Assembly: GCA_012518395.1 (NCBI GenBank)
Contig: JAAYSJ010000022.1
Span: forward strand, 1 to 48,815
DNA length: 48,815 nt
Reading direction: 5' to 3'
From: Clostridiales bacterium
GTDB taxonomy: Bacteria; Bacillota; Clostridia; Caldicoprobacterales; UBA3941
Shown one piece after another: positions 20,296 to 48,549 of this stretch (the stretch's first letter is position 1; each line of letters opens with the position of its first letter). The translations under genes were made by a program, and so were the position numbers. A model generated the notes under the pieces. It made no database searches. It had not been told where the DNA came from and saw only the letters and a list, made by a program, of their open reading frames with translations.

Positions 20296-20302
20296 AACGT
20301 AT

Positions 20303-25002: not shown

Positions 25003-25015
25003 TGGGAGTGTTGAA

Positions 25016-26290: not shown

Positions 26291-26370
26291 TGCCAGGGAT
26301 CTATCAAGAAACTGGGGCTAACGAGGAATGCTCGCTTTGGGCGTGCTTATTATACTAGGAGGAATCAACT

Positions 26371-27444: not shown

Positions 27445-27462
27445 TCAGCGCAGCACCCTTGC
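27427..27462. other. Hairpin overlapping the kinase stop codon
   Basis: gcaagggt ... acccttgc enclosing gcgctgatcagcgc. Confidence 0.6.
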
Positions 27463-27502
27463 TAACAAAGAATGTTTATCAAGAAAGTTATGTGTTCAAT
27501 CT

Positions 27503-28018
27503 TTAAATGGATAACATCGTGTTATCAGCGCTGGTGTCAACATAGAACCCGCTGATAATAAATATTACCGAAAAAACAGCACCCATAAAGGCGGTATATA
27601 CTGATTTATAGATGGTATAGCCCCATAGGGTAAAATGGGTGAAACCGAATAAGTATATTCCCAGGGCAGATAAACCGTATATCAATGGAATCATACCTAT
27701 ACACAGGAGCCAGCCATATCTGGCAGGTTTTTTGAACCAATGCCCCATCCACCTTGAGAGCTTAGTTTTTGGTTCCTTGACACCATAATAATTGTCTTTT
27801 TTCAGTCCTGAATTGATTGACCAGGCGATAAGCCAGGCCAATATCAGTGATGTTATTAGGATATCAAAGACTAAATCTATATAGTTTTGCTGCATACTGA
27901 CCTGTTCAAGGTGGCTATTCAGATTCAGAAAATAGGCAATTAACCCGTTAATAACACCGTTTATAAAGAATGACATGACCGCCTGGATGGCAATATATTT
28001 TTTTTGATCTTTTGTCAT
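27503..28018 (-). CDS. Small four-TM membrane protein of unknown function
   Basis: Hydrophobic segments; start overlaps the stop of the upstream GH29 gene by 4 nt. Confidence 0.7.
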   Translation of the reverse strand: MTKDQKKYIAIQAVMSFFINGVINGLIAYFLNLNSHLEQVSMQQNYIDLVFDILITSLILAWLIAWSINSGLKKDNYYGVKEPKTKLSRWMGHWFKKPARYGWLLCIGMIPLIYGLSALGIYLFGFTHFTLWGYTIYKSVYTAFMGAVFSVIFIISGFYVDTSADNTMLSI

Positions 28019-29148
28019 CTTATCCTGCCCTCCAAATTCTCCAATATCTTGACCTGGTAGTCGGCAATATTGCCAAAAGAATCCGGGCCTGCGTTTAAAA
28101 GGAGGCGGCCTTTTTTGGGCACTATATCGTCCAGCATGGCAATCACTTCATCTGCGGTAATATAATCTTGGGGACGGCTTAGCTTATTATAACCAAAGGA
28201 CTTATCCATACCCCGACATACTTCAAACCAAATATCTTCTTCATTCCACTCTGTGTTATACTCCAGGGTACGATAATCATAATATTTCGTATCTATGGGT
28301 TTGGCAGAACCTTTTTTAAGAACCTTTCTGGCTTGGCTGGTGATAAAGGCTTTCCCCAAGGAGTTTCTAAAGATATTAGGCCATTGACCCCATCGATCAT
28401 TGACTACACCTTCCGGGACAGTTTTGTAGTAATAAGCAAACAGATCTTCAAGCCTGTTGTCCGTGGGATAGCCAATATCACTCCATAGTATATCAGGTTG
28501 GTATCGATCTATTATTTCCATCCAATGATTCAGGCAATAATCACGGTATTCCTTTGAATTGTCATTGCCCATAAACATAGAGCCCGCATCGATAATAGGG
28601 TTTTCCGTAAAGGTCCAATCAATTAGGGAGGAATAGTAGATACCAAAGCGCATCCCTTGCTTTCGTACAGCGGCTGCAAGATTTCCAATATAATCAAAAT
28701 CCAGGTTATAACCCGGCATCTTAGGATTTCTGACTTTTGTATCAAACAAAACAAAACCGTCATGGTGCTTGCTTACTACGACCACATATTTAGCCCCGGC
28801 TTTTTTAAATAATACAGCCCATTCTTCAACGTCCACATTTTTCGAATGTTCCTTAAATTCATCTGCAAATTTACTATAAGGTGTGTCTCCGTAATGTTCT
28901 TTGTGGTAGGCGTATGCAGGGCTGTCTTTGATCCTGATACTGTTTTGATACCATTCAGCATAGGGGAAATTTTCAAACATGTATTCCATGGGCTTCTCCC
29001 GCAGGAGTTTGTCATAATCGTCTACATCTACGGGAGCGAATGCGGGGATGCTGTACGGCCCCCAATGAATGAAGATCCCAAAGTTGGCCTCTCGGAACCA
29101 TTGGGGTGGGTCATAGCGGTGAATGTTGGGGTGTTTGGTAGCTTTCAT
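28015..29148 (-). CDS. GH29 alpha-L-fucosidase-family protein
   Basis: WFREANFGIFIHWGPYSIPAF, KYVVVVSKHHDGF, GIYYSSLIDWTF, PDILWSDIGYP nucleophile region. Start at MKATKHP after ggaggtcgg. Confidence 0.9.
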   Translation of the reverse strand: MKATKHPNIHRYDPPQWFREANFGIFIHWGPYSIPAFAPVDVDDYDKLLREKPMEYMFENFPYAEWYQNSIRIKDSPAYAYHKEHYGDTPYSKFADEFKEHSKNVDVEEWAVLFKKAGAKYVVVVSKHHDGFVLFDTKVRNPKMPGYNLDFDYIGNLAAAVRKQGMRFGIYYSSLIDWTFTENPIIDAGSMFMGNDNSKEYRDYCLNHWMEIIDRYQPDILWSDIGYPTDNRLEDLFAYYYKTVPEGVVNDRWGQWPNIFRNSLGKAFITSQARKVLKKGSAKPIDTKYYDYRTLEYNTEWNEEDIWFEVCRGMDKSFGYNKLSRPQDYITADEVIAMLDDIVPKKGRLLLNAGPDSFGNIADYQVKILENLEGRIR

Positions 29149-29469
29149 GGGCCGACCTCCTGTAATATAAAATTGGTTGTACTGCGTTGGTTCTTTATTC
29201 ACATTTATTGGATTGATGTACCGATATTATATAAAAAGCTATGCATTAACACAAGGATAAGATATAGATTGTTGCCTTAACCCCTTACAATTCATTATAC
29301 AAGTTCCCCTAATAGGATGTCTCCAAAAGATTTGGTATAAAATTCGGTCATACTGAACCTTGTTGGGGGTGATTCAACTGTACTGAGCTGGATCTGGTAT
29401 ATTTCCGGCTAAGGTAAAAGATAAAGGGAATAATAGATTTAATGATGGAGGCTCTACGAATAAATTTTT

Positions 29470-29997: not shown

Positions 29998-30099
29998 GTG
30001 GGTAACTTTTTCCTTGCCCATATTCTTGTTCACAAAATTAGATTAATGATATAATATTAATATAATTGGCCAATGCAAGAAAGGGAAGGGGATAAAGCA

Positions 30100-31125
30100 A
30101 TGAATTCTTATGAAAGGGCCCTTGCGACGTTGGAGGGCAGAATACCGGATAGGGTACCTACTTTTGAGATTATGATTGACCCCAAAGTAATAAAGGGTCT
30201 TATGGGTTATGACGATTATATGGATTTTTGTGATTATATAGATATGGATATAGTGGTGACATCGACCCCGTCCAGTCTATACAGGAATATGCCTGTTGAT
30301 GAATCCAGGGGTATCTACAGAAACGAATGGGGAACCGTAAGGCAATATGGAGCTGAGGTCGTGCCCTCAGTACTTGAAGTACCATTAAAAGATGTGGCTG
30401 ACATTTACGAATATACCCCGCCTGACCCATACGATGAATACAGGTACACCCAGCTAAAAGATTTGCTAAAGCGTTTCAAAGGCAAGCGCCTTGTAGGAAT
30501 GCACTTACATGATTCCTTTAACTATCCATACTATTTAAGGGGAATGGAAGACCTGTTTATGGATATGTTTGATGACCCCGAGGCGGTACACCATTTGGTG
30601 GATATTACAGTGGATCATAATATTGCAATCGCCGAAAGGGCCATCGATTTGGGCGCCGATTTTATCCTTTTAGGGGATGATTATGGCGGTGGTGATAGTC
30701 TTTTGATTTCGCCTAACCAATTTAAAGAGTTTTTCCTGCCTGGTTTTGAAAAAATAGTGGATAGTATCAAATCCAAAGGGGCTCTTTGTATAAAGCATTG
30801 CTGCGGGAATATAAATTCCATATTGGACGAAATGGTGGACGCGGGGATAGATGCCCTCCACCCCTTAGACCCTAGCGCTGGAATGGATATAGTGGCTGTC
30901 AAAGAAAAATACAAAGACCTAACGGTTATCGGGGGCATAAATTGCTACGAGCCTCTATGCGAATATACCTTAGACGAATTGAAAGCTGGGGTAAAGAATG
31001 TGATGGGGCAAGCAGCCCCTGGGGGAAGATATATAATGGCATCCAGCAATAGCATACACTCTGATGTAAAGCCTGAGAACTTTAAAGCTATGCAAGAGTA
31101 TGCCAAAAAATATGGGAAATATTGA
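30100..31125 (+). CDS. Uroporphyrinogen decarboxylase-superfamily (MtaA-like) protein
   Basis: ILLGDDYGGGDSLLISPNQFKEFFLPGFEKIV, KHCCGN (HxCGN zinc-type motif), DALHPLDPSAGMD. Confidence 0.85.
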   Translation: MNSYERALATLEGRIPDRVPTFEIMIDPKVIKGLMGYDDYMDFCDYIDMDIVVTSTPSSLYRNMPVDESRGIYRNEWGTVRQYGAEVVPSVLEVPLKDVADIYEYTPPDPYDEYRYTQLKDLLKRFKGKRLVGMHLHDSFNYPYYLRGMEDLFMDMFDDPEAVHHLVDITVDHNIAIAERAIDLGADFILLGDDYGGGDSLLISPNQFKEFFLPGFEKIVDSIKSKGALCIKHCCGNINSILDEMVDAGIDALHPLDPSAGMDIVAVKEKYKDLTVIGGINCYEPLCEYTLDELKAGVKNVMGQAAPGGRYIMASSNSIHSDVKPENFKAMQEYAKKYGKY

Positions 31126-33867: not shown

Positions 33868-34686
33868 GTGTATACAATGGATCAATATGACAACCTGGAA
33901 GAAATAGAACAATATATGGCGGGAATGGATCTAAATAATGTAGAACTGGTCTTTTGCGAGAGATTCGATGGTAAGAGCAGGATATGGAATTTTAAAAAGC
34001 ACCGCCATGATTATGTGGAGATTATCTACTTTATAGAGGGCAGGGCAAACATCTCTGCAATGGAAGAGATATTAAAATTAAACATCCATAATATTGTCCT
34101 TTACCCGGAGGATTGTGATCATCAGGAGATTCTTGACATGCGATTTCATCAAGATGTGATATGTCTCGGGATTAAAGCAGATGCCACCAAAAAGCTGGGA
34201 TATCCTTTTAAGATAACGGATAAAAAAGGGGATCTAAAGTGGCTGTTTGAAAAAGTACATTTTGAATACACCAATAAACTTGATTGCTCCACAGATATCA
34301 TCCCCCTGTACTTAAAGGCAATTTTCCACTTGATTAGACGATCCTTCAGATATGGAAGAACTAAGGAATATAATATTGTAGATCATGCAGCAGATTATAT
34401 TAAAAATAATCTGGGAAAAGAACTGAATGTAGATAACATTGCCGCCTCCGTACATATCAGCCCATCTTATCTTACAAGGTTATTCCGAAAGGAAATGGGT
34501 ATTACCCCCATGAAATATGCTAATTATTTAAGGACAGATACTGCCAAAAGGCTTCTTATTCAAGAGAATTATTCTATAGCACAGATATCCGAACTGGTGG
34601 GCTATAAGGATCAAAAATATTTTAGTAGGGCTTTTAAGAATAATACAGGCTTGACTCCCTCACAGTTTAGAAATCTGGAAGGGTAA
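33868..34686 (+). CDS. AraC-family transcriptional regulator
   Basis: KHRHDYVEIIYFIEGRANI sensor; SPSYLTRLFRKEMGITPMKYANYLR and VGYKDQKYFSRAFKNNTGLTPSQFR HTH motifs. Confidence 0.9.
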   Translation: MYTMDQYDNLEEIEQYMAGMDLNNVELVFCERFDGKSRIWNFKKHRHDYVEIIYFIEGRANISAMEEILKLNIHNIVLYPEDCDHQEILDMRFHQDVICLGIKADATKKLGYPFKITDKKGDLKWLFEKVHFEYTNKLDCSTDIIPLYLKAIFHLIRRSFRYGRTKEYNIVDHAADYIKNNLGKELNVDNIAASVHISPSYLTRLFRKEMGITPMKYANYLRTDTAKRLLIQENYSIAQISELVGYKDQKYFSRAFKNNTGLTPSQFRNLEG

Positions 34687-34988
34687 GCTGAGTAGTAGAA
34701 TAGGGATAAAACTTTGTTTTTGAAAAAGAAATCAATTTATAGGAAGAGTTCAGAAAAGTCTACTTTTTAGGTTCTAATAGGGGTTGATAATGCCCTGCAA
34801 AACTATTACCATAAAATATGGATCATACAAGATTAAAGAAAAGCAATTATAATAGTCAAGTAAAAAGTCGAAATTGGTTTTTAACAATATTTACTGTTTA
34901 AATCATCATTGGAATATAAAAATTGAAAATCCAAATAGACCCTGCCTAAAATGTAAGACGTAAAAGAGGTCTGGAGCAAAAAATAGGG

Positions 34989-37382
34989 GTGAAAGATATG
35001 ATGGGTATGAAGGATAACATCAGTGAGATCGGAAAATTACAATTTACGGACAGAATAGCTGATCTGAAGGAAAAGATGTTTGAAGAGCCAAGATATTTAT
35101 CCTTAGAGCAGGCTTTGCTTATAACAAAATGCTATAAGGAAAATGAGGATCTGCCGAGAATTTTACAGAGGGCAAAGAGTCTTGCCCTTGCCCTTGGGGA
35201 AATTTCTATCAAAATTGATCCCCAAGAACTAATTGTGGGTAACCGGACTATCGGGGTAAGGGGTGGGGTCGTATCACCTGAGGCGGGAATCTCATGGGTA
35301 GCTAACGAAATTGAAACATTGCCCACAAGGCCCCAGGACGTATTCAATGTAAGGGAAGAGGACATAAGGGATTTTAGAGAAATCGTACTGCCCTATTGGG
35401 AAGGAAAATCCCTGGAAGATTTGGTGAAAAAAGAAATCGGGGAAGAAATGTCAGCAATGGGTAAGGCAGTAAAGATCAATCAGACTGACCACGCCCAGGG
35501 ACATATATGCCCCAACACACCCAAATGGCTGAGAATGGGTCCGGCTGGGTTAAAAAAGGAGGCCGAGGAAGAACTAAAAACTGCCCCGGAAGATAAAAGG
35601 GTGTTTTATGAAAGCGTGATAATTGTACTTTCAGCTGCCCAGGATTTTATGAGACGATATGGTCGTCTTGCATTGGACATGAAAGAAGAGGCAGAGGATG
35701 AAATTCTAAAGACGAACCTTTCTAAAATAAGTAAAATATGCTTTGATTTAGCCGAAAGGCCGCCCCAAACCTTCCATGAAGCAGTGCAATCCTTTTGGTT
35801 TTTGTATACTATTTTGCAGATGGAATCCAATGCCTCATCTTTTTCTCCGGGAAGGGCAGATCAATACCTGTATCCGTACTTTAAAAAAGATATGGAGGAA
35901 GGAAGGATCACCCTGCAGGATTCATTAGAGATAATAGAAGCCCTTTGGCTGAAATTTAACCAGATTGTATATATGAGAAGCTCCAACAGTGCCAAGTATT
36001 TTGCAGGCTTTCCTATAGGCTTTAACGTGGCTATAGGCGGGCAATCAGAAGACGGTAAAGATGCTTCGAATGAACTTTCTTATCTGTTTTTAAAGGCCCA
36101 GGAACACCTGCTTCTGCCCCAGCCAAACCTTTCTGCAAGATTATTCGCAGGTTCGCCTATGGAATTTGTAAAGGAATGCAGCAGGGTTATAGGCAGGGGA
36201 AGCGGCATGCCCCAGCTTTTTAATGACGAGGCTGTTATACCTGCTTTAAAAGCCCAGGGTATCAGCGAAGAAGATGCTATAAACTATGCTATAGTTGGGT
36301 GTGTGGAACTCACTACCCATGGAAATAATCTTGGCTGGAGTGATGCAGCCATGTTCAATCTGGTCAAAGTCCTGGAGCTCACATTAAATAACGGTGTCTG
36401 TCTTCAGACCGGAGACCGGATAGGGCTAGAGACAGGTTTTCTAACGGACTATAAGACTTACGAAGAATTGGAAGCCGCATATGTGAAACAAATGGATTAT
36501 TTCATTGAAAAGATGGTATCTGCATGCGATATCGTTGATCGATTACACGCCGAATACCTGCCTTCGCCCTTTTTATCCAGTGTGATCGACGATTGTGTGA
36601 AAAAGGGCATAGATGTTACGGCAGGCGGGGCCCACTATAATTATTCAGGTATCCAGGCTATTCAGGTAGCCAATATCGCAGACAGCCTGGCTGCCATTAA
36701 AAAATTCGTATACGAGGATAAGACCCTGAAAGCTGATGAACTTCTTAAAGCCCTGCAAACGAATTATGAGGGCAGAGAAGAATTAAGACAATACCTCATT
36801 AATAGGGCGCCAAAATACGGGAATGACATAGCCTGGGTAGATAATATAGGCAACAAATGGATCAGTTATTTTACAGACCATCTAAAAAAATATAGAAATG
36901 CCAGGGGCGGCCCCTACCATGTAGGCTTATACACGGTTTCGGCCCATATACCCATGGGTCATAACGTGGGCGCCTCGGCAGACGGAAGGCTTTCCAGAGA
37001 CCCTCTGGCTGATGGCGGGATGTCTGCCATGTATGGAAGAGATCAGAATGGACCTACCGCTCTTCTAAAATCAGTATCAAGAATAGACTCTATAAATGGA
37101 AGCAATGGAACCTTACTAAATATGAAGTTCTTACCCGAATTTTTCAGGACAGAGGAGGGCATTGAAAAATTTGCTCATATGCTCATGGCTTTTGTTAACC
37201 TTAAGATAGTCCATGTTCAGTTCAATGTCGTAAATAGAGAGGACCTAATAAAAGCCCAGCAAAACCCTGAGGCCTACAGGAGTCTTATAGTCAGGGTTGC
37301 CGGCTACACAGCATACTTTACTGAGCTGGCAGGGGACCTCCAGGACGAAATAATAGCGAGAACCAGCTACGGTGGAGTCTGA
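34989..37382 (+). CDS. Glycyl radical enzyme, PflD-like dehydratase/lyase
   Basis: INQTDHAQGHI, RSSNSAKYFAGFPIGFNVAIGG, YAIVGCVELTTHGNNLGWSDAAMFNL, glycyl loop VRVAGYTAYFTELAGDLQDEIIARTSYGGV. Confidence 0.93.
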   Translation: MKDMMGMKDNISEIGKLQFTDRIADLKEKMFEEPRYLSLEQALLITKCYKENEDLPRILQRAKSLALALGEISIKIDPQELIVGNRTIGVRGGVVSPEAGISWVANEIETLPTRPQDVFNVREEDIRDFREIVLPYWEGKSLEDLVKKEIGEEMSAMGKAVKINQTDHAQGHICPNTPKWLRMGPAGLKKEAEEELKTAPEDKRVFYESVIIVLSAAQDFMRRYGRLALDMKEEAEDEILKTNLSKISKICFDLAERPPQTFHEAVQSFWFLYTILQMESNASSFSPGRADQYLYPYFKKDMEEGRITLQDSLEIIEALWLKFNQIVYMRSSNSAKYFAGFPIGFNVAIGGQSEDGKDASNELSYLFLKAQEHLLLPQPNLSARLFAGSPMEFVKECSRVIGRGSGMPQLFNDEAVIPALKAQGISEEDAINYAIVGCVELTTHGNNLGWSDAAMFNLVKVLELTLNNGVCLQTGDRIGLETGFLTDYKTYEELEAAYVKQMDYFIEKMVSACDIVDRLHAEYLPSPFLSSVIDDCVKKGIDVTAGGAHYNYSGIQAIQVANIADSLAAIKKFVYEDKTLKADELLKALQTNYEGREELRQYLINRAPKYGNDIAWVDNIGNKWISYFTDHLKKYRNARGGPYHVGLYTVSAHIPMGHNVGASADGRLSRDPLADGGMSAMYGRDQNGPTALLKSVSRIDSINGSNGTLLNMKFLPEFFRTEEGIEKFAHMLMAFVNLKIVHVQFNVVNREDLIKAQQNPEAYRSLIVRVAGYTAYFTELAGDLQDEIIARTSYGGV

Positions 37383-38299
37383 TGAAAGGCAACATCGTTG
37401 ATATTAAAAAATTTACGCTTCACGACGGACCCGGGATAAGAACCACAGTTTTTCTAAAAGGCTGTCCCTTAAATTGTATATGGTGTCAAAACCCAGAGGG
37501 TATAGACAGTAAGATACACCTTTGGCACTTTGAAAAGAGCTGTATAGGGTGCCATAAATGTATAGCCGCCTGTGATAATAGCGCCTTATCAGCGGGGGAT
37601 TCCAGGAACCGGATAATCATAGACAGGGATAAGTGCACAAATCTGGGTAATTGCGTAGAGGTTTGCCCAACAAGGGCTCTAAGCTTTGATGGCAGACAGG
37701 TCAGTGCAGAAGAAGTGGTTGAAATCCTGTTGGAAGATAGAATGTTTTACACTATGTCCGGGGGTGGAATAACCCTTTCCGGGGGCGACCCTGTATTCCA
37801 GCCTGAATTCGCCATTGAAATTTTAAAGGCTTGTAAAAAGGAAGGCATCCATACGGCAATTGAAACTGCTATGTACAGCGGTCAAAAGACCATTGAAAGG
37901 TTTTTTGATCATGTTGATATGTTTATTGTAGATCTCAAGATTTTTGATAGCAAAGACCATAAAAAATATACTGGTGTTGATAACGGGCTGATAAAATCGA
38001 ATTTTGAATTTATAGCCGCACAAAAAGAGGATGTACTGGTCAGGATTCCGCTGATACCCGGAATAACCACAAAAGAGGGTAATATAAGGGGGATTGCAAA
38101 GCTCGTCAGAAAAACCGGCAGGAAAATCCCCGTAGAACTTATAAACTTTAACCCCCTCGCAGAAAATAAGTACAGGCGTATGGATAAAGATTATGATCTA
38201 ATCAGGGGGATGCAGCCTCTTTCCGAAAGCGAATTGGATTTCTTGTATCAGATTCTTATTGAAGAAGACGTAGAAATTTTAAGGGATACAAAGATATAA
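37382..38299 (+). CDS. Glycyl radical enzyme activating protein (radical SAM with two-cluster ferredoxin insert)
   Basis: KGCPLNCIWC (CX3CX2C), CIGCHKCIAAC and CTNLGNCVEVCP clusters; start overlaps GRE stop (TGATG). Confidence 0.93.
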   Translation: MKGNIVDIKKFTLHDGPGIRTTVFLKGCPLNCIWCQNPEGIDSKIHLWHFEKSCIGCHKCIAACDNSALSAGDSRNRIIIDRDKCTNLGNCVEVCPTRALSFDGRQVSAEEVVEILLEDRMFYTMSGGGITLSGGDPVFQPEFAIEILKACKKEGIHTAIETAMYSGQKTIERFFDHVDMFIVDLKIFDSKDHKKYTGVDNGLIKSNFEFIAAQKEDVLVRIPLIPGITTKEGNIRGIAKLVRKTGRKIPVELINFNPLAENKYRRMDKDYDLIRGMQPLSESELDFLYQILIEEDVEILRDTKI

Positions 38300-38333
38300 T
38301 TAAAAATCAATATTTTAGGGGGTATTGTTTTTT

Positions 38334-40169
38334 ATGATAGATAAATTGTTACGGAAAGCGAAAGAAGGAAATCCGGTTTATATAAGTCATGTGTCCAAGA
38401 CCTTCAACGAACTTGCAGCGGATAAAAGGCAAGACATGAACTGCGTGTTAAGAACCATGGAAGATGATGGTGACAGATTGTTTAAAATAAGTCTGCCTGT
38501 CTTTGAGGATTTTGATGGCGAAGAAGCAGATTTTATTAAGAATTATTTATGGGCTAAGGTCTATAATATACTCTCGAGTCTTGGCGGCAGGGGGATGGAT
38601 ATCTATATAGATAAAAAAAACACCGGGCTCTTGGATTTGGCAAAGGGATTAAATAATGCTTTTTCTGTTGATAAAAGACGCCTGGAAAGGCACGGATATG
38701 GCAGGACCGTAAATGTTATAGATCGTATGTTAGGTACCTTATATCCTGGAGAACCCGGATTCAAATTCGATGTCCATGATATTTCACAAATGCCAAAGAT
38801 CAATCCAAATGCAGATAAACATATAAGGGACTCAAGTATATTTGTCAGGGCTGCCGAAAAATTAGAAGGCAGGATTCTGTGCGGGATAGATATTGGCGGC
38901 ACTGATATTAAGGCAGTCCTTGTCAAAGATGGCAATATCGCCTGTTACAAGGAATATGACTGGTTTCCTGCAGATTTTAAAGAATCAAGCCAGCTGGTTG
39001 AGCCTATTTGCCTGATCGTAAGACTTATGAGAGCTAAGATTACCTTGGATAATTGTAAGAACCCCTACGTGGATAGGGAAGTCTTGGAAGATGACATGAG
39101 GAGGGCCCTTCATAAAGATGCCTCTGACACTTTTATACTTTCAGTCGTTGAAAAAGTTGAAACTGCCCTGAAAGACGAGCTGGCAGGAATAGATGCCCTG
39201 GGCCTTTGCTTTCCCGATGTGGTCGTTAAAAATAAAGTCGTCGGGGGCGAGGTATATAAAACCAGAGGGATAAGAAATAACCCCGAGATTGATTACGAAG
39301 CGGATTTTCTAAAACTCACTAACCTTGATAACAGGCTTAAAGAATTAGTAAGAAAAGGTGGAGCAGTAAGGATAATAAATGATGGGCCTATGGCTGCATT
39401 TACTGCCGCAGTAGAGAATGCAGCAACTGGTGCTATTGAATCCGTTAATAACGGTGTGTTTGCCCACACTCTTGGGACAGAGTTGGGGACAGGCTGGGTT
39501 TACGGGGACGGGCTAATACCCGATATACCATTGGAAGTCTATAACTTTATAATAGACCTTGGAAGTTTCGTTGAAAAGGGATATCCTTCTGATGATTTAA
39601 GAAGTATCAACAATTTTAACACCGAACTTTCGGGTACCCTACAAAAATACTGCAGCCAGAGCGGCATCTTCAGGCTGGCCATGAAGTATTTCCCCAAATT
39701 CAGGCCGGATCTTTATAAGGAATTGTTTGATAAAGGTTATGTAATAAAAAGGGAAATGGGTGGTAAAACAGGTTATTTTGTACCGACGGAGCCCATTGAC
39801 CAGAGAAAACCTTTCTTAGAGCATATGATGAGTCTGCCTGAGAGGGAGAGAGACGAGGTTAACGATAGAATCTGGAGGGAATTGGGTGAGTTTCTGGCTA
39901 TTACATGGATAGAGACCCAAGAGATCCTAAGGCCGGAGACAGCGGTAAGGGTGCTTTTTGGAAGGCTCGTGAAAAACAGGCGCTGTTTTGAGCTGATTCA
40001 AGAAGGGGCAAAGACAATAGTTGAAGATATTATCCTTGAAACAGCTGATGCAGAAATGGCCAATACCCCCTTGATGAAGCAATTAGAAGAGGATGCGGAC
40101 TTTACAGTGGCCCAGTTCGCCCAAGCCGTAGGGGCCGTTTATTTTGGAAACCTGGGGCTAATAGATTAA
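38334..40169 (+). CDS. Divergent ROK/ASKHA-fold protein with about 180-aa N-terminal extension
   Basis: CGIDIGGTDIKAVLVKDG phosphate-1-type motif; no ROK CxCGxxGCxE zinc motif. Confidence 0.7.
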   Translation: MIDKLLRKAKEGNPVYISHVSKTFNELAADKRQDMNCVLRTMEDDGDRLFKISLPVFEDFDGEEADFIKNYLWAKVYNILSSLGGRGMDIYIDKKNTGLLDLAKGLNNAFSVDKRRLERHGYGRTVNVIDRMLGTLYPGEPGFKFDVHDISQMPKINPNADKHIRDSSIFVRAAEKLEGRILCGIDIGGTDIKAVLVKDGNIACYKEYDWFPADFKESSQLVEPICLIVRLMRAKITLDNCKNPYVDREVLEDDMRRALHKDASDTFILSVVEKVETALKDELAGIDALGLCFPDVVVKNKVVGGEVYKTRGIRNNPEIDYEADFLKLTNLDNRLKELVRKGGAVRIINDGPMAAFTAAVENAATGAIESVNNGVFAHTLGTELGTGWVYGDGLIPDIPLEVYNFIIDLGSFVEKGYPSDDLRSINNFNTELSGTLQKYCSQSGIFRLAMKYFPKFRPDLYKELFDKGYVIKREMGGKTGYFVPTEPIDQRKPFLEHMMSLPERERDEVNDRIWRELGEFLAITWIETQEILRPETAVRVLFGRLVKNRRCFELIQEGAKTIVEDIILETADAEMANTPLMKQLEEDADFTVAQFAQAVGAVYFGNLGLID

Positions 40170-40246
40170 AGCCTATTTTTAATTACTGGTTTGTGGGATT
40201 ATAATAAATATAACAAAGGACATATGTGTTGTGAAGGAGCGCAATT

Positions 40247-41017
40247 GTGGGGCTGACAGGAAGGATATTTAATATACAAAAGTTTAGTATAAATGATGGC
40301 CCGGGTATCCGAACTACGGTCTTCTTTAAGGGCTGCCCCCTGGGCTGCCCTTGGTGTGCCAACCCGGAATCACAAAACCGTTACGCCTATATCGCAGACA
40401 CCATGGGGGATGAAGCCTATAGCGGGAGGGATTATACTGTGGAAGAGGTTATGACCCAGGTTCGCAAGGACAAACCCTTCTACCAACAATCCGGCGGTGG
40501 CATGACCTTATCCGGCGGCGAGGTTTTACAACAAATGGAGTTTGCTATAGCCTTATGCAAGGCAGCCCACAGCGAAGGAATCCATGTAGCAGCAGAGACA
40601 ACCGGCTACACTGCCCCTGGTCGATTCCAAGTCTTTCTGCCTTTTGTAGATTTGCTTTTATTTGACTTTAAGCACTATGACAGAATAAAACACCATGAAA
40701 GTATAGGTGTATACAATGATATAATTTTGGAAAATCTCCGTCAGTCTGTGGATGCAAAAGTGCCAGTCATTGCCCGAATCCCGGTAATTCCTGAATTCAA
40801 TAGCAATTTGTCTTCAGCAAGGCAAATGGCACAGACACTGGCTGATATAGGCATAAAAGAGATACACCTGCTTCCCTTCCATCAGCTTGGGGAGAAAAAA
40901 TATGAGCAGATGGGGCTGGACTATGCTATGAAAGGAGTAAAGCAACTCTATCCCGAGGATTTGCAGGAATATCAAAAGGTATTTTTGGATTATGGTTTGG
41001 ATTGTAAATTTCAATAA
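40247..41017 (+). CDS. Glycyl radical enzyme activating protein without ferredoxin insert
   Basis: KGCPLGCPWC radical SAM motif, DGPGIRTTVFFKGC, GGGMTLSGGEVLQQ; GTG start after gaaggag. Confidence 0.9.
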   Translation: MGLTGRIFNIQKFSINDGPGIRTTVFFKGCPLGCPWCANPESQNRYAYIADTMGDEAYSGRDYTVEEVMTQVRKDKPFYQQSGGGMTLSGGEVLQQMEFAIALCKAAHSEGIHVAAETTGYTAPGRFQVFLPFVDLLLFDFKHYDRIKHHESIGVYNDIILENLRQSVDAKVPVIARIPVIPEFNSNLSSARQMAQTLADIGIKEIHLLPFHQLGEKKYEQMGLDYAMKGVKQLYPEDLQEYQKVFLDYGLDCKFQ

Positions 41018-41141
41018 GCCATATACCTTTACGCTCTCTCATCCAATCTGGATCTTTTCCTTTCAGATTCATTCGAAAGATATTGAAAAGTATTCTTAAA
41101 TTATGTTATATTGGAAAGAGAATACTAAAAAGGAGAACTGA

Positions 41142-41891
41142 ATGGAAAAAAGAGGAGCCCAAATATTAGAACTTTTATCGAGACATGGAAAAATCAGGGT
41201 TGCTAAATTGGCAAAGCAGCTTGGTGTATCACAGGTAACTATACGCAAAGATTTAGATGATATGGGACGAAAAGGTGTTATCCGACGGGAACACGGTTAT
41301 GCCATATTTGGCGGCAGTGACGATGTGGCCAATCGATTGGCCTTTCATTACGAAGAAAAACGCAGGATTGCTACTAAAGCCGCAGGGTTGGTATCCGCAG
41401 GCGAAACAGTTATGATTGAAAATGGCAGCTGTTGTACTTTGTTGGCAGAAGAGATTGCCAGGACAAAACCCAGCACCACTATTATTACGAATAGCGCCTT
41501 TATAGCCAGCTATATCCGCCGGGTGGAAGGAGCCCGCGTAGTCCTTTTAGGAGGGGATTTTCAAAATGATGCCCAGGTAATGGTAGGGCCTATCTTACGG
41601 GTTTGTGTGGAACAGTTCCGTGTAAACAAGCTATTTGTTGGGGCAGATGGCTATATTCCCGGAATAGGTTTCACCGCTAACGATCATCTTCGTGTACAAG
41701 CAGTGCGAGATATGGCTGAACGCGCCAAAAAAGTAATCGCAGTTACAGAAAGTGATAAATTCTTTAGAGACAGCGTTACTCCCCTTGCAATCCATAAGGG
41801 AGTGGCTGCAGTAGTCACGGATCAGCAGATTTCGCCAGAGGCAGAGGAGATTCTACAAAAAGACGGGATCAAGATATATAAGGCGGGTTAG
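41142..41891 (+). CDS. DeoR-family transcriptional regulator
   Basis: N-terminal HTH (VAKLAKQLGVSQVTIRKDLDDMGRKGVIRREHGYA) and DeoR sensor domain. Confidence 0.93.
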   Translation: MEKRGAQILELLSRHGKIRVAKLAKQLGVSQVTIRKDLDDMGRKGVIRREHGYAIFGGSDDVANRLAFHYEEKRRIATKAAGLVSAGETVMIENGSCCTLLAEEIARTKPSTTIITNSAFIASYIRRVEGARVVLLGGDFQNDAQVMVGPILRVCVEQFRVNKLFVGADGYIPGIGFTANDHLRVQAVRDMAERAKKVIAVTESDKFFRDSVTPLAIHKGVAAVVTDQQISPEAEEILQKDGIKIYKAG

Positions 41892-41932
41892 GTTTCCAAC
41901 ACATACCCTTGTGTTTCATTTGAAATTACAAG

Positions 41933-41961
41933 TTGACATGTTCGTAAACGATTGTTATAAT
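41933..41961 (+). promoter_or_regulatory. Consensus sigma-A promoter with palindrome in the spacer
   Basis: TTGACA-17 nt-TATAAT; tcgt-aa-acga inverted repeat at 41942-41951 inside the spacer. Confidence 0.85.
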
Positions 41962-42020
41962 GAAATCAACATTAGTAATTAACTCTTATAATTTTACAAT
42001 ATACAGAATGGATACATATT

Positions 42021-42962
42021 ATGAAAAACTATCGGATTGGTATTGACGCCGGCGGCACCAAAGTCGCCTATGGTTTAGTTGATGAAGATAATAGATTAGT
42101 CGACCGGTTCCAACACCCAACCCCAATCGAGGCCAATGGTTTTGATTTTTCTGATCTGGTTATTGAAAACATTGAAAAGCTCCTGGACAGAAATGGCAAA
42201 ACCAAAAAGGAATTACAGGGCATCGGTATATGCATGCCGTCGTTTATTCTTTTTGATAAAGGCTACATATGTATGACCTCTGCTATGGTGAATATTAGGG
42301 AATTCCCTATGCGGGATTATTTGACCAAACGATTAGGGGTGCCTATTGCACTGGATAACGATTGTAACGTGGCTGCCCTGGCAGAACATAGATTTGGCGC
42401 CGGGCGTGGCAGTCGCCACATGATTTACGTGGCTACCAGCACCGGTATCGGCAGCGGGCTTATTTTAAACGGCCAGCTTTTTCGAGGCAGCTATGGTTGG
42501 GCCGGGGAGAGTGGTCACATGCTTATTACACCTGACGAGGGTATCCTTTGCGGTTGTCAAAACCAGGGCTGTTTTATGTCTTGGGCTGCGGGGCGATATA
42601 TTCCGGACCATATTCGACAACGAGCCAGGGACAGGGACACTACAATAAGTATAGACCAGAATCTGGGTTGTGAAGAGCTTGCACGCTCCTGCCGGGAAGG
42701 AGACCCTCTGGGTCTTGAGATTCTGGATCAAATGGCCCATTACATTGCCGTATGTATATTTAATATCTACCAACTACTTAATGTTAACCTATTTGTCTTT
42801 GGGGGCGGAATGGTGAACTTTGGTCCTATGCTCTTTGATCGCGTACGATCCAAGTTTGACCAGTATAATCATATCCCCCAGCCGGTGGAATTTCGATTCG
42901 CCCAATTAGAAAAGGATCCCGGCATCATAGGCGCGGCAGAGTTGGTGCGGGAAGCGTTATGA
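42021..42962 (+). CDS. ROK-family sugar kinase
   Basis: GIDAGGTKVAYGLV, STGIGSGLILNGQLFRGSYGWAGESGHM, CGCQNQGC zinc motif. Confidence 0.93.
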   Translation: MKNYRIGIDAGGTKVAYGLVDEDNRLVDRFQHPTPIEANGFDFSDLVIENIEKLLDRNGKTKKELQGIGICMPSFILFDKGYICMTSAMVNIREFPMRDYLTKRLGVPIALDNDCNVAALAEHRFGAGRGSRHMIYVATSTGIGSGLILNGQLFRGSYGWAGESGHMLITPDEGILCGCQNQGCFMSWAAGRYIPDHIRQRARDRDTTISIDQNLGCEELARSCREGDPLGLEILDQMAHYIAVCIFNIYQLLNVNLFVFGGGMVNFGPMLFDRVRSKFDQYNHIPQPVEFRFAQLEKDPGIIGAAELVREAL

Positions 42963-43064
42963 CGGGCGTTTAAGTAGGCAAGCGATCTGTAACCCTTGGA
43001 TATCGGCAGGAAAATCCTGTTGATTATATATCAAAAAAGTATATCTAAGCTAGGAGGAAAAAGA

Positions 43065-44090
43065 ATGAAGAAACTGATGGTTTTGTTGCTGACGATGGTT
43101 TTAGTCTTAGGCATAGTGGCTTGCACAAGCACACCTGCCGAAGCACCCGCTGGTGACAAGCAAGCACCCGCAGGCGAGGAGCAGGGCGGCACTGATGCTG
43201 ACGCTGACAAACCTGCAGACAAGGACGGGGAGGTTAAGGTAGCTTTTATCACCCAATCTCTTTCAAACGCTTCCCAAGCTTACGCTTGGACACAGTTCCA
43301 AAAGTATGCGGACGACTATGGCTTTACAGTAACCGTCTTTGAAGAGGATTATGACGCACAAAACGGTGTTGCTGCTATTGGTACCTGTATTGCCCAAGGC
43401 TATACAGCAATATGCATTAACCCAACAGATCCAAGCGCCATGATTCCATCTTTCATGGAGGCCCAGGAAGCTGGTATTATTGTTGGCATGTATTCTTCTG
43501 AAGTTCCCGAAGGTAACGAGAAATATCGTGACTTTATGTGCGGTACCGACGACTATATGGCCGGCGAAGTGGCTGCCCAAACCCTGATGGAAGAATTCCC
43601 GGACGGTGTGAAAGTCGTTCAGGTTGGTGGACAATCCGGTCATAGTGCACAGATCAAGAGAAATGATGGCTTTGTCGATACCATCAAAGACACTAATATC
43701 ACTTTATTGGATTCCAAGGATTGCGGAGCATGGGCCAGTGAGGACGCCATGGCTATTATGGAAGACTTTATAGTCGCTTACGGCGATGAAATCCAAGCCG
43801 TATACTGTCACTGGGATGTTGGCGCCACCGGCTGTATCGAGGCACTGAAAAATGCCGGTATGGACGATGTATATGTAATCGGTGTTGATGGCTGTTCTGT
43901 TGGTTATGACCAAGTAATAGAGGGCACCCAGGCCTTATCCATAGGCCAGAGCTTCTCCCAGATGACTCAGGATGCTTTTGATAACATTACCAAGATCATG
44001 AAGGGCGAAGATTTTGACGAGGTCGTATGGACCAAGTTAGATATAGTTACCAAAGATACCGTTAATGATTTCCCATATCCTGAATGGTAA
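43065..44090 (+). CDS. Periplasmic-binding-like sugar ABC lipoprotein (RbsB type)
   Basis: Lipobox GIVACTS; AICINPTDPSAMIPSFMEAQEAGI; GVDGCSVGYDQVIEG. RBS aggagg. Confidence 0.92.
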   Translation: MKKLMVLLLTMVLVLGIVACTSTPAEAPAGDKQAPAGEEQGGTDADADKPADKDGEVKVAFITQSLSNASQAYAWTQFQKYADDYGFTVTVFEEDYDAQNGVAAIGTCIAQGYTAICINPTDPSAMIPSFMEAQEAGIIVGMYSSEVPEGNEKYRDFMCGTDDYMAGEVAAQTLMEEFPDGVKVVQVGGQSGHSAQIKRNDGFVDTIKDTNITLLDSKDCGAWASEDAMAIMEDFIVAYGDEIQAVYCHWDVGATGCIEALKNAGMDDVYVIGVDGCSVGYDQVIEGTQALSIGQSFSQMTQDAFDNITKIMKGEDFDEVVWTKLDIVTKDTVNDFPYPEW

Positions 44091-44123
44091 TCAGACCAAG
44101 TAAAAAGGGGTTTTGAAGGTTTA

Positions 44124-44158
44124 CCAACTTACTCTGGTTTAGCGCCGGGGTAAGTTGG
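44124..44158 (+). other. Intercistronic hairpin after the SBP gene
   Basis: ccaacttac ... gtaagttgg inverted repeat. Confidence 0.6.
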
Positions 44159-44191
44159 CCCTTTAAATTCATAGGGGGGTAAGCACATTAA

Positions 44192-45661
44192 ATGGGTGAA
44201 AATATCCTTGTCGTAAAAGATGTATGTAAATATTTTCCGGGTGTAACGGCTCTGGATAATGTCTCCATAGAAGTACCGCGGGGTATCGTCTATGGTATCG
44301 TAGGTGAAAACGGGGCCGGCAAATCTACGCTTATGAAGATTTTGTCCGGTGTTTATGAAAAAGATGGAGGCACAGTTGTCTTCAACGGCGAGACCATAGA
44401 ACATACTACTCCAATTCAAGCCTTGCAACGCGGTCTCAGTATTATCTACCAGGAATTCAACTTGGTTAACTCCATGACCGTGGGCGAAAATATTTTTTTA
44501 GGTCGTTTCAAAGAGAACCGTGGTATGCGAGGCACACATAAAAAGGCCAGGGAGCTTCTGGACAGCATCGGCAGCACTATTAACACTTATACAATGGTAG
44601 GGGATCTTAGCGCTTCCGAAATGCAGATGGTGGAAATCACCAAGGCCTTATCATTCGATTCAAAACTGATTATTATGGACGAACCTAGTAGCTCCTTAAC
44701 TTCAGAGGAACTAAAGCGACTGGGTATAATTATAAATCAACTTCGTGACAAAGGAATCTCAATTATTTATATAAGTCACAAACTCGATGAAATTTTTGAA
44801 TATTGCGATATTGTTACCATTTTGCGTGATGGTCGTGTTATTGATACTAAGCCTGTTGGCGAGTATACCCGCAATGAGATGATTGCGAAAATGGTTGGCC
44901 GTACCATCGAAAATGAATTCCCGCCCCGGGCACATTTTGTAGCAGAACCTTTGCTTGAAGTCCGTAATCTTAATACAAAGAAGCTCAAGGATATTAATTT
45001 CACCTTACATAGGGGCGAAATCCTTGGATTGGTCGGGTTGGTAGGTGCTGGTCGTACGGAAATTATCCGTGCACTGTACGGTGCTGACAAAGCACGGGGT
45101 CACAAGATATTTCTGCGGGGCAAGCCAGTTAATATCCGAAACCCCAAACAGGCCATGCGGGCAGGTATGGGTCTGGTGCCGGAAGACCGTAAGCATGAGG
45201 GTCTTATTCTTCCCTTTTCCGTCGAGGGTAATATCACTATGGCATCATTGGAAGCCTTGACTAAGTATGGGATTGTTAATCGGGCAGCTGAAAGGGATAT
45301 CGCCAAACGTCAGATAGACTCCCTTTCCATTAAAACACCTACTCAAACAACCAAAATGATCAGCCTTTCAGGGGGTAACCAGCAAAAATGTATCGTTGGC
45401 CGATGGCTAGAGATAGAACCTGATATATTGATTCTGGATGAACCAACCCGGGGCATTGATGTGGGTGCCAAATACGAAATTTATCTTCTAATGAATAAAA
45501 TAGTGGAATCCGGCGGAGCGATTATTATGATTTCCTCAGAACTGCCGGAGGTATTGAACATGAGCAACCGGGTTTTGACCATTTGTGAAGGCCGCATAAC
45601 CGGTGAATTCAAGCCTGAGGAATCCAGTGCCGAGGAAATCATGGAAAGAGCAATTGGGTGA
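44192..45661 (+). CDS. Sugar ABC transporter dual-domain ATPase (RbsA/MglA type)
   Basis: GENGAGKSTLMKILSGVY Walker A, LSGGNQQKCIVGRWLEIEPDILILDEPTRGIDVGAK. Confidence 0.95.
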   Translation: MGENILVVKDVCKYFPGVTALDNVSIEVPRGIVYGIVGENGAGKSTLMKILSGVYEKDGGTVVFNGETIEHTTPIQALQRGLSIIYQEFNLVNSMTVGENIFLGRFKENRGMRGTHKKARELLDSIGSTINTYTMVGDLSASEMQMVEITKALSFDSKLIIMDEPSSSLTSEELKRLGIIINQLRDKGISIIYISHKLDEIFEYCDIVTILRDGRVIDTKPVGEYTRNEMIAKMVGRTIENEFPPRAHFVAEPLLEVRNLNTKKLKDINFTLHRGEILGLVGLVGAGRTEIIRALYGADKARGHKIFLRGKPVNIRNPKQAMRAGMGLVPEDRKHEGLILPFSVEGNITMASLEALTKYGIVNRAAERDIAKRQIDSLSIKTPTQTTKMISLSGGNQQKCIVGRWLEIEPDILILDEPTRGIDVGAKYEIYLLMNKIVESGGAIIMISSELPEVLNMSNRVLTICEGRITGEFKPEESSAEEIMERAIG

Positions 45662-45677
45662 GAACGGGGGGAATAGA

Positions 45678-46646
45678 ATGAAACGAGATATATCGGCCAG
45701 ATTCACACGATCCTTGAGAAATAATTTAGTGTTGGTCGGCATCATTGCTTTGATTGTTGTTACAGCCATAATAGAACCCAAATTTATCAGTTCTGCCAAT
45801 CTGACAAATGTAATGCGGCAGCTTTGGCCCCTGCCCTTTATTGCTTTGGGTATGACCTTTGTTATTATTGGCGGCTTTATCGATCTGTCTGTCGTGGGGA
45901 TGATTTCTTTGTCAGGCGTGGTAGCAGCTTCCCTAATCAACCCTCTGGGTCAGGTGGGAGCCATATTATCAGGCATTCTACTTGGGGGGATGATGGGCTA
46001 TTTAAACGGATTTGTCCTTACCACTGTAGGAGCCATGATACAGGCAGAGGTTTTATTTATTACCTTTGGCATGAGTTCAATATATACCGCCATCGCTTTA
46101 CTTTTGACAAATGCCGAGACTCTGCGTATTGCCAGAAGCACTAAACCTTATAATATTTTTACCGCTTTAGGCTCCGGCACTGTGGGTATGATTCCAGTTG
46201 TTCTGATCGTATTTCTGGTTATATTGGTTATTATGCACTTGTTTTATAAAAAGACACTTGCCGGCCGCAGTATTAGTCTCATGGGCGGTAATAAAGAAGC
46301 CGCTTTTCTTACGGGTTATAATGTCAAACGCAGCATGCGTCTTGTCTACACCATCAGCGGCATTATGTCCGGTATGGGGGCTGTTTCTTTGGTCTCCCGT
46401 GTTACTACGGCTACAGCTACCAGCGGCATAGGATATGAGACCAATGCTATTTTATGTGTTGTTGTTGGCGGTACCTCGCTGAAGGGTGGCAAGGGCAGTG
46501 TCATCCGAACTATGTTGGGAGTTTTATTGGTTGTGCTTTTGGGCAACTGCATGAATTTACTGGGCTTATCTACCTTTATGCAGACTGTCATGCGTGGTGC
46601 GGTTTTGGTTATTGCAATTTGGCTTGATAACCGCAGGGAACTGTGA
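45678..46646 (+). CDS. Sugar ABC transporter permease (RbsC type)
   Basis: Multi-TM, GGFIDLSVVGMISLSG, GGTSLKGGKGSVIRTMLGVL. Confidence 0.92.
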   Translation: MKRDISARFTRSLRNNLVLVGIIALIVVTAIIEPKFISSANLTNVMRQLWPLPFIALGMTFVIIGGFIDLSVVGMISLSGVVAASLINPLGQVGAILSGILLGGMMGYLNGFVLTTVGAMIQAEVLFITFGMSSIYTAIALLLTNAETLRIARSTKPYNIFTALGSGTVGMIPVVLIVFLVILVIMHLFYKKTLAGRSISLMGGNKEAAFLTGYNVKRSMRLVYTISGIMSGMGAVSLVSRVTTATATSGIGYETNAILCVVVGGTSLKGGKGSVIRTMLGVLLVVLLGNCMNLLGLSTFMQTVMRGAVLVIAIWLDNRREL

Positions 46647-46662
46647 GGAGGCGACTTATAAG

Positions 46663-47631
46663 ATGAATATAAAAATTGCGTCCCAAAGGGTTTGGGGAAC
46701 GATATCCAAGCAAGGAGCCGTACTTGCTATCCTTGTGTTGATGATTATGATGCTTTTTTTTAAGACCAATTTCTATACAGCCTATAATTGGCTGGATATG
46801 CTGAGGTCCGCGGCTATTTTGGAGATTGTTGCATTTGGTGTTACTGTGGCAGTTATTTGCGGCGGATGTGATTTATCTGTAGGTGGCACATTGAGTTTTG
46901 GCGGCATTGCCGCGATCCTTCTTATTAATATTGGATTTCCCATCTGGTTGGCAATAATTATTGCCGTCCTAGGCGGTGCGTTTGTGGGCTTTATCAATGG
47001 ATTTCTGGTTGTGCATCAAAAAACTGAGCCCTTCATTATTACCCTGGGTATGGGAATGTTATTAAAAGGTGTATGTCAGGTTCTTACCGATGCCCATCCC
47101 TTGCCTAGTAAGGTTCCTGCCTTTATGGAAATCTCTAATAGCAAGTTTTTCGCTTCCATACCCTCTCTGGTTGTTTATATGGTAATCTTGTTTGCTGCAT
47201 TTCACTATCTTATGCGTTATACCAGCTTTGGAAGGAATTGCTATGCCATAGGAGGCAATTATGAGGTAGCGGAATATTCCGGTATAAAGGTTATCCCTAC
47301 AAAATGGGCGGCCTTTATCATCAGCGGTGCTACAGCGGCCTTGGCCGGTGTATTGCTTGCCTCTCGTATGAATACCGGTTCTTCCGTTTACGGAGACAAT
47401 ACCGGAATGTTGGTCAATTGTGGAGTTGTTATAGGCGGTACTTCTTTCGCAGGAGGGGTAGGAGGTATCAGAGAGAGCTTTATCGGCCTCTTTGTTATTC
47501 AGATACTGATTAACTGTATGTCTATGCTGGGCCTGGACAGTTACTATCAAAAACTTTTCGAAGGCATACTTATTGTTACAATTATTGGGCTTGATTGTTT
47601 CTTCAGAATGCGCAAGCGTGAGAGTGTTTAA
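46663..47631 (+). CDS. Sugar ABC transporter permease (RbsC type)
   Basis: GGCDLSVGGTLSFGG, GGTSFAGGVGGIRESFIGLF. Confidence 0.92.
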   Translation: MNIKIASQRVWGTISKQGAVLAILVLMIMMLFFKTNFYTAYNWLDMLRSAAILEIVAFGVTVAVICGGCDLSVGGTLSFGGIAAILLINIGFPIWLAIIIAVLGGAFVGFINGFLVVHQKTEPFIITLGMGMLLKGVCQVLTDAHPLPSKVPAFMEISNSKFFASIPSLVVYMVILFAAFHYLMRYTSFGRNCYAIGGNYEVAEYSGIKVIPTKWAAFIISGATAALAGVLLASRMNTGSSVYGDNTGMLVNCGVVIGGTSFAGGVGGIRESFIGLFVIQILINCMSMLGLDSYYQKLFEGILIVTIIGLDCFFRMRKRESV

Positions 47632-47679: not shown

Positions 47680-48549
47680 ATGGACTTGAAAGAGCAGAAT
47701 TATCTGGATCATTTAGTCGGCGTTTTTGGTCAGCCCGTTTCGGAAAATCCGGGTGTTGTTATTCAAGAGGCTGCTTTTCAGGCTATGGGTCTGGAGAGAT
47801 GGCGCTTTTTGACCATAGATGTGGATAGAGATCAGTTGGAAAATGCTATAAATGGCTTAAAGGCATTTAAAATGCGGGGAATTAATTGTACTATGCCCCA
47901 TAAAATCGAGGTTATAAAATATTTGGATGAGATCTCCGAAAGTGCCAAGCTAATTGGCGCGGTTAATACTATAGTCAATGATGGGGGCAGATTGTTTGGC
48001 GAAAATACCGATGGCAAGGGCTTTATGATGTCCCTCGAGTCAAATGGGATAGATGTCAATGGGAAGAGTGCTGTGGTATTTGGTGCCGGCGGTGCTGCCC
48101 GTTCTATATGCGTAGAAATGGGTCTGGCCGGTATAGCGGATATTACTATTGTAAACAGGACACAGGACAGACACTTAGGTGATGGGTTGGTAGAGATCCT
48201 ACAGAAGAATACAAAGGTAAAGGTCCGGTATGTGGATTGGGACGGCCCCTATTCTATCGAGGAAGGCACAGATATTGTTATTAATGCTACTTCCGTGGGG
48301 CTTTACCCCGATATAGATGCAATGCCTGACATCGATATGGACAGCATTAAGGATAATATGTTCGTACAAGATGTTATACCGAACCCTGTTGAAACAGCCT
48401 TTATCAAAGAACTTCGCCGCAGGGGAATCCCATCTTCTACTGGTGCAGGGATGCTGATCAATCAAGCGGCCCTGAATATTTTGATGTGGACAGGTATGGA
48501 GCCGGATAAGGATATTATGTATCAGGCATTGGAAAGGGAGTTATCATAA
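47680..48549 (+). CDS. Shikimate dehydrogenase-family (AroE-like) oxidoreductase with altered substrate pocket
   Basis: NCTMPHK catalytic Lys, ENTDGKGF catalytic Asp, GAGGAARS and NRTQDR NADP motifs; canonical SxS segment reads PVSENPGVV. Confidence 0.88.
   Translation: MDLKEQNYLDHLVGVFGQPVSENPGVVIQEAAFQAMGLERWRFLTIDVDRDQLENAINGLKAFKMRGINCTMPHKIEVIKYLDEISESAKLIGAVNTIVNDGGRLFGENTDGKGFMMSLESNGIDVNGKSAVVFGAGGAARSICVEMGLAGIADITIVNRTQDRHLGDGLVEILQKNTKVKVRYVDWDGPYSIEEGTDIVINATSVGLYPDIDAMPDIDMDSIKDNMFVQDVIPNPVETAFIKELRRRGIPSSTGAGMLINQAALNILMWTGMEPDKDIMYQALERELS

What the first reader, a model, noticed from the sequence alone, without database searches (positions are those of the whole stretch)
38334..40169. 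Uncharacterised 614-codon ROK/ASKHA-like protein between two GRE activases
It has a ROK-type GIDIGGTDIKAV motif about 190 residues in, an N-terminal extension with no family I recognise, a very long internal region and no ROK zinc motif. A conventional ROK kinase exists in the same locus (42021-42962), so this one probably does something else: another kinase specificity, a GRE accessory/reactivase function, or a sugar sensor.
Basis: partly seen in the sequence, partly recalled or inferred. Interest (0 to 1): 0.65.

Follow-up and report, generated by a model that had tools for sequence, protein, structure and literature searches.

The report
Unclassified ROK-like kinase beside radical enzyme
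This gene encodes an undescribed type of sugar kinase that travels with an oxygen-sensitive ring-opening radical enzyme, and it probably adds the phosphate that the radical enzyme needs before it can break down an unusual sugar.

Summary
The ORF is real, intact and conserved (ATG 38334, 611 aa). It matches no Pfam or NCBIfam model. AlphaFold2 (pLDDT 87.6) plus Foldseek show a ROK/hexokinase-fold kinase domain (residues ~180-611) behind an N-terminal domain (1-179) with no relative in the PDB. DxGGT, the catalytic Asn-Asp and the sugar-binding Glu are kept. ExGH has become ExxN, and the zinc cysteines are gone.

Orthologues (Spirochaetes, Clostridia, Planctomycetes, Betaproteobacteria) sit directly beside a PflD-type glycyl radical enzyme (GRE) and its activase in 14 of 16 informative loci, usually with a sugar ABC transporter and a keto-sugar-reductase-like AroE paralogue. 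The partner GRE is the sister clade of E. coli PflD, which opens 1,5-anhydromannitol-6-phosphate. A 62% orthologue of it elsewhere lies beside a fructose-6-phosphate aldolase. Where this protein is missing from such loci, a PTS, a PfkB kinase or an FGGY kinase is there instead.

Best reading: a PTS-independent ATP:sugar kinase that makes the phosphorylated (probably anhydrohexitol) substrate of the GRE. A GRE reactivase is unlikely, because orthologues occur in a family of genomes without any PflD-type GRE. The substrate is inferred, not shown. The host genome has no recognisable FSA aldolase, so the downstream route is open.

The parts
38334..40169 (+). Protein X, 611 aa: ROK-fold kinase with an unassigned N-terminal domain
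38334..38870 (+). N-terminal domain of X (residues 1-179), alpha/beta, no PDB relative
   Evidence: AF2 pLDDT 87.6 on 22 sequences; Foldseek best E 0.029, TM 0.31
38889..38903 (+). DIGGT (residues 186-190), ROK phosphate-1 motif DxGxT
   Evidence: motif definition from PMC5458393
39378..39383 (+). Asn349-Asp350, predicted catalytic Asp pair
   Evidence: aligned with the ROK 'ND' by hhalign; invariant
39474..39497 (+). GTELGTGW (residues 381-388), second phosphate loop
39534..39545 (+). ExxN (Glu401-Asn404) in the place of the ROK ExGH
   Evidence: hhalign aligns E401 with E163 and N404 with H166 of the local ROK
38317..38322 (+). AGGGGG, probable ribosome-binding site of X
   Evidence: sequence
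34989..37382 (+). GRE2: PflD-sister glycyl radical enzyme, partner of X
   Evidence: TIGR01774 833 bits; closest PDB 8yjo PflD; pocket signature and tree
37382..38299 (+). act1: activase of GRE2, directly upstream of X
   Evidence: TIGR02494 330 bits; GRE2-act1-X order conserved
40247..41017 (+). act2: second activase, probably for GRE1
   Evidence: TIGR02494 279 bits; beside GRE1 in L147
31126..33540 (-). GRE1: YbiW-type glycyl radical enzyme
   Evidence: closest PDB YbiW/6xs4; same residue as YbiW at all 27 pocket positions compared
33868..34686 (+). AraC-family regulator
41142..41891 (+). DeoR-family regulator
42021..42962 (+). Conventional ROK kinase, in the transporter unit
   Evidence: PF00480 202 bits; promoter-like 12/12 site at 41933-41961
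42996..47631 (+). Sugar ABC transporter: binding protein, ATPase, two permeases
47680..48549 (+). AroE paralogue, closest to 5-ketofructose reductase
   Evidence: closest PDB 7cok, 228 bits; lacks the SxS motif

Best explanation
X is an ATP-dependent sugar kinase of the ROK/hexokinase fold. The sugar enters unphosphorylated through an ABC transporter. X then transfers the ATP gamma-phosphate to a primary hydroxyl (O6-equivalent), with Asp350 as base, Asn349 and Glu401 as sugar ligands, and the two glycine loops (DIGGT, GTELGTGW) holding the nucleotide. This supplies the phosphorylated cyclic polyol that the adjacent PflD-type GRE (activated by act1) opens. By homology the substrate is a 1,5-anhydrohexitol (mannitol type) or a close relative, and the product a 1-deoxyketose phosphate. 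X thus does the job that a PTS does for E. coli PflD. Shown: fold, conserved motifs, gene association, replacement pattern. Inferred: kinase activity, acceptor sugar, order of steps. The role of the N-terminal domain (substrate lid, dimerisation, or contact with another protein) is unknown.
For: Fold: best Foldseek hits are ROK glucokinases (2qm1, E 7e-12, TMt 0.72) and the visible top 50 are almost all ROK/hexokinase proteins. hhalign to conventional ROKs gives E 2.8e-6 with the ND pair and ExGH Glu aligned. Context: GRE2-act1-X adjacent in 14 of 16 informative loci; L010, L012 and L015 have X but no ROK inside the stretch held. Partner: GRE2 is the sister clade of PflD (support 0.999) and shares 22 of 27 pocket positions with PflD, including those that separate PflD from YbiW. 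PflD and YbiW open 1,5-AM6P and 1,5-AG6P made by a PTS (review PMC12441222; E. coli loci). A 62% GRE2 orthologue lies beside an FsaA-like aldolase (L134). Replacement: PTS with a 57% PflD (L135), PfkB kinase between GRE and activase with an ABC transporter (L138, L143, L144), FGGY kinase with a binding protein (L142).
Against: No activity data. Five pocket positions differ from PflD in the whole GRE2 clade (K152H, Y326F, S423T, Y429L, H432S), so the substrate may differ. The PfkB- and FGGY-associated GREs have other pockets, so they show replacement of a kinase in GRE operons, not the same sugar. No FSA family member (TIGR00875) in the host genome or in seven other X-bearing genomes. X also occurs in GRE-poor genomes of family f42 and, at 35%, in G246 without an adjacent GRE, so the family is not confined to this pathway. 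A second kinase (ROK, 42021) is in the locus and could do this job.
Confidence: 0.6

Rival explanations
1. X is a sugar kinase, but its acceptor is not the GRE substrate: the ROK at 42021 feeds the GREs and X phosphorylates another sugar or an intermediate such as the AroE-like reductase's product.
For: X orthologues occur without PflD-type GREs in family f42, next to a ROK and a URO-D-like gene. ROK is also in the window and in L008 and L013.
Against: GRE2-act1-X is the tightest unit, while ROK goes with the transporter unit and with GRE1/act2 in G014 and G026. L010, L012 and L015 show no ROK in the stretch held.
Confidence: 0.22
2. X is a GRE-dedicated ATPase: reactivase, chaperone or activase helper, like the ASKHA reactivases of B12 diol dehydratases.
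For: ASKHA fold, similar length (the length of the B12 reactivases is recalled, not tested), and it sits beside the GRE and activase. Weak profile hit to the 2-hydroxyglutaryl-CoA dehydratase activator 1hux, E 0.0019.
Against: X occurs in genomes with no PFL-like protein (G094) or only distant ones, about 30% to PflD. PflD, YbiW and the GRE2 orthologue in G268 manage without X in their loci. ROK catalytic residues are kept and the top fold hits are sugar kinases.
Confidence: 0.07
3. X is a non-catalytic sugar sensor or ROK-type regulator.
For: Many ROK proteins are repressors, and the ROK repressor Lmo0178 appears among the fold hits.
Against: No HTH family hit and the N-terminal model matches no winged helix. 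The catalytic Asp is invariant. AraC and DeoR regulators are already present.
Confidence: 0.05

Closest known systems
ROK family sugar kinases (PF00480; e.g. glucokinase 2qm1, S. griseus GlkA 3vgk)
   Same: Kinase-domain fold, DxGGT, catalytic Asn-Asp, second glycine loop, Glu of ExGH
   Different: About 15% identity, Pfam ROK E 0.028 below cut-off, extra 179-aa N-terminal domain, helical insertions, ExxN instead of ExGH, no zinc cysteines
Inorganic polyphosphate/ATP-glucomannokinase (1woq)
   Same: Best single-sequence PDB hit (E 0.016); same core motifs
   Different: 267 aa, no N-terminal domain, only marginal similarity
E. coli anhydroglycolysis loci (pflD-pflC-frw PTS-fsaB-gldA; ybiW-ybiY-fsaA)
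   Same: PflD/YbiW-type GREs with activases; AraC-type regulator beside pflD (yijO; family from memory)
   Different: Here an ABC transporter plus X/ROK replace the PTS; no FSA in the genome; an AroE-type keto-sugar reductase paralogue is added
463-aa neighbour of X in L038 and L039 (no Pfam family)
   Same: Remote homologue: ROK-like core behind an N-terminal domain (BLASTP E 3e-5)
   Different: Shorter, unassigned function, no GRE context

Membership tests
ROK family | DxGxT nucleotide motif | tested here: met
   D186-I-G-G-T190; D186, G188 and G189 invariant, T190 over 90%
ROK family | Catalytic Asp in the active-site loop (ND) | tested here: met
   N349-D350 invariant and aligned with the ROK ND
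ROK family | ExGH sugar-binding motif | tested here: not met
   E401-V-Y-N404: Glu kept, His replaced by Asn (Gln in L037). A structural relative with Tyr at this place exists (PMC5458393)
ROK family | CxCGxxGCx(E/D) zinc motif | tested here: not met
   No cysteine motif; F. nucleatum NanK, a ROK member, lacks it too (PMC5458393)
ROK family | Score above the Pfam PF00480 cut-off | tested here: not met
   14.4 bits against 22.9
ROK/hexokinase fold (ASKHA sugar kinase) | Structural match | tested here: met
   Foldseek E 7e-12, probability 1.00
ATP-dependent sugar kinase | Phosphoryl transfer to a sugar | not testable with these tools
   Needs an enzyme assay
Acyl-CoA dehydratase activators (BadF/HgdC) | Conserved cysteines for a 4Fe-4S cluster and a dehydratase partner | tested here: not met
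   C292 is not kept in f42 orthologues and only C551 is invariant; no acyl-CoA dehydratase among the genes of 33868-47631
Anhydroglycolysis locus | PflD/YbiW-type GRE with activase | tested here: met
Anhydroglycolysis locus | FSA aldolase | tested here: not met
   No TIGR00875 match in the host genome; met in L134 and L006

The most novel reading that the evidence does not exclude
X founds a new sugar-kinase family with an N-terminal domain of unknown fold, and it phosphorylates free 1,5-anhydrohexitols. That would define a PTS-independent branch of radical-mediated anhydro-sugar breakdown in Spirochaetes, Clostridia and other anaerobes, in which an AroE-derived reductase first reduces a keto form such as 1,5-anhydrofructose.
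Probability: 0.3. Interest if true: 0.62.

Novelty: new variant of a known kind. Interest (0 to 1): 0.48.

Why it matters
The described route for breaking down 1,5-anhydro-sugars with glycyl radical enzymes relies on PTS transport in E. coli and gut bacteria. A dedicated ATP kinase would extend it to anaerobes that import sugars by ABC transporters, and would give a testable function to a protein family that Pfam and NCBIfam do not cover. The N-terminal domain may be structurally new.

Tried and rejected
GRE reactivase and acyl-CoA-dehydratase activator: rejected on distribution and residues. ROK repressor: no HTH. PTS enzyme I as a discriminator: not informative, as PF02896 matched every genome searched and all 14 control genomes. 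Arg311 of PflD as a phosphate marker: dropped, it is also in other GRE clades. Plasmid search with X: nothing. Literature searches for GRE with ROK or shikimate dehydrogenase: nothing relevant. The primary paper on PflD and YbiW is not in the library; I used a review and my own memory of its abstract.

Full report
What is there. The ORF 38334-40169 (+) encodes 611 aa from an ATG preceded by AGGGGG. It lies between two GRE activases (TIGR02494, both above cut-off) and directly after the pair GRE2 (34989-37382) and act1 (37382-38299). It has no Pfam or NCBIfam family even at E 0.01. The best weak hits are ROK, E 0.028, below its cut-off, and individual ROK kinases. The genome has one copy.

Fold. 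An alignment of 16 relatives gave an AlphaFold2 model with mean pLDDT 87.6 and pTM 0.89. Foldseek against the PDB returned ROK glucokinases first (2qm1, E 7e-12, TM 0.72 by target length), followed almost entirely by ROK and hexokinase-fold proteins. Profile-profile comparison with conventional ROKs gave E 2.8e-6 and aligned Asn349-Asp350 with the ROK catalytic ND, Glu401 with the ExGH Glu and Asn404 with the ExGH His. The ROK motifs are DxGxT, catalytic Asp, ExGH and CxCGxxGC (PMC5458393); X keeps the first two, half of the third and none of the fourth. In known kinases of the fold the catalytic Asp contacts O4 and O6 (MurK, PMC10465942), and in human ManNAc kinase the ExGH His and the Glu of the zinc motif are among the sugar ligands (PMC2742894). 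My inference that a lost His fits a sugar without a normal anomeric hydroxyl is only suggestive.

N-terminal domain. Residues 1-179, modelled alone from 22 sequences, reached pLDDT 87.6, and no PDB entry matched (best E 0.029, TM 0.31). A 463-aa neighbour of X in two genomes is a remote homologue that also carries an N-terminal region, so the architecture may belong to a wider undescribed clan.

Neighbourhood. Relatives came from genome contigs and unnamed whole genomes. GRE2-act1-X are adjacent in the window, L005, L006, L007, L008, L010, L012, L013, L015, L016, L017, L019, L043 and L044 (in L019 the order is act1-X-GRE2). L011 and L014 are the two informative loci of this branch without that adjacency, and both show a GRE or activase fragment at the contig edge. 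L009 and L018 are too short to tell. The f42 loci and L037, discussed under Limits, are counted apart. An ABC sugar transporter and the AroE paralogue usually join. In G014 and G026 the set is split: GRE2-act1-X on one side, and act2-DeoR-ROK (with the transporter genes in G014) plus GRE1 on the other. In the window a perfect promoter-like site stands before ROK (41933-41961), which fits two units. X therefore pairs with GRE2, and ROK with the transporter unit and GRE1.

The partner enzyme. GRE2 is closest in the PDB to E. coli PflD and GRE1 to YbiW (44% and 52% identity). In a tree of 31 GREs, GRE2 is the sister clade of PflD with support 0.999, and GRE1 groups with YbiW. Of 27 pocket or signature positions, GRE2 equals PflD at 22 and GRE1 equals YbiW at all 27. 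PflD and YbiW cleave 1,5-anhydromannitol-6-phosphate and 1,5-anhydroglucitol-6-phosphate to 1-deoxyfructose-6-phosphate after PTS phosphorylation (Ma et al. 2024, as described in PMC12441222). E. coli pflD sits with PTS genes, and fsaB, gldA and ptsA lie nearby. A GRE2 orthologue at 62% in G268 has an activase and an FsaA-like aldolase beside it.

Replacement. In 391 genomes of the class, X occurs in 11 at E 1e-5, one of them (G133) a weak partial match to a 992-aa frame. GRE2-clade genes occur in three, two of which have X. In related GRE loci without X, the phosphorylating part is something else: PTS EIIA and EIIC with a 57% PflD homologue (L135), a PfkB kinase between GRE and activase with an ABC transporter (L138, L143, L144), and an FGGY kinase with a binding protein (L142). 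This is the main reason to call X a kinase for the GRE pathway rather than an accessory factor. The PfkB- and FGGY-linked GREs have different pockets, so the sugars need not be the same. Other PflD-related loci looked at (L136, L137, L139-L141, L145, L146) show no kinase or PTS gene that I recognised beside the GRE, so the pattern is not universal.

The AroE paralogue. The gene at 47680-48549 is a second copy beside a housekeeping aroE in the genome. All ten cassette copies carry ENPG or DNPG where true shikimate dehydrogenases have the SxS motif, and the closest PDB entry is 5-ketofructose reductase 7cok. That enzyme type is a known shikimate-dehydrogenase relative (PMC7954740). It is thus probably a keto-sugar reductase, which strengthens the sugar reading of the cassette.

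Limits. The genome has no FSA match at 98% completeness, so the fate of a 1-deoxyketose phosphate is unexplained. Orthologues in family f42 (L038-L042) lie in a URO-D-ROK-X group without a PflD-type GRE, and a 35% relative in G246 lies with a sugar transporter and a PMI-like gene. X is therefore a family of sugar kinases with one major GRE-linked branch. Activity and substrate remain untested.

Noticed in passing
window 47680-48549: AroE paralogue that lost the shikimate carboxylate motif (SxS to ENP) and is closest to 5-ketofructose reductase; annotation pipelines would call it shikimate dehydrogenase (TIGR00507 above cut-off).
   Followed up: partly
window 30073-31125: URO-D-family protein convergent with GRE1; URO-D-like genes also sit near X in L038 and L039.
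   Followed up: no
L011:512-2020, L014:631-2208: GMC-type flavin oxidoreductases in X loci of a betaproteobacterium and an unnamed bacterium; with the AroE-like reductase they could form an oxidise-then-reduce epimerisation pair.
   Followed up: partly
L038:5938-7326, L039:6934-8337: Unclassified 463-468 aa ROK-like protein beside X, no Pfam family, remote homologue of X.
   Followed up: partly
L138, L143, L144: Operon of ABC transporter, GRE, PfkB kinase, activase, Gfo/Idh oxidoreductase with a distinct GRE clade of unknown substrate.
   Followed up: partly
L019:15525-17296: Split transketolase pair about 1.3 kb after GRE2 in a Spirochaetales genome whose only FSA-model matches are weak and partial; a possible alternative route for a 1-deoxyketose phosphate.
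   Followed up: no
window 18871-29202: Upstream genes look like a uronate operon (glucuronate isomerase, 6-phosphogluconate dehydrogenase, SDR, LarA-like, PfkB kinase, named by eye from sequence), probably unrelated.
   Followed up: no
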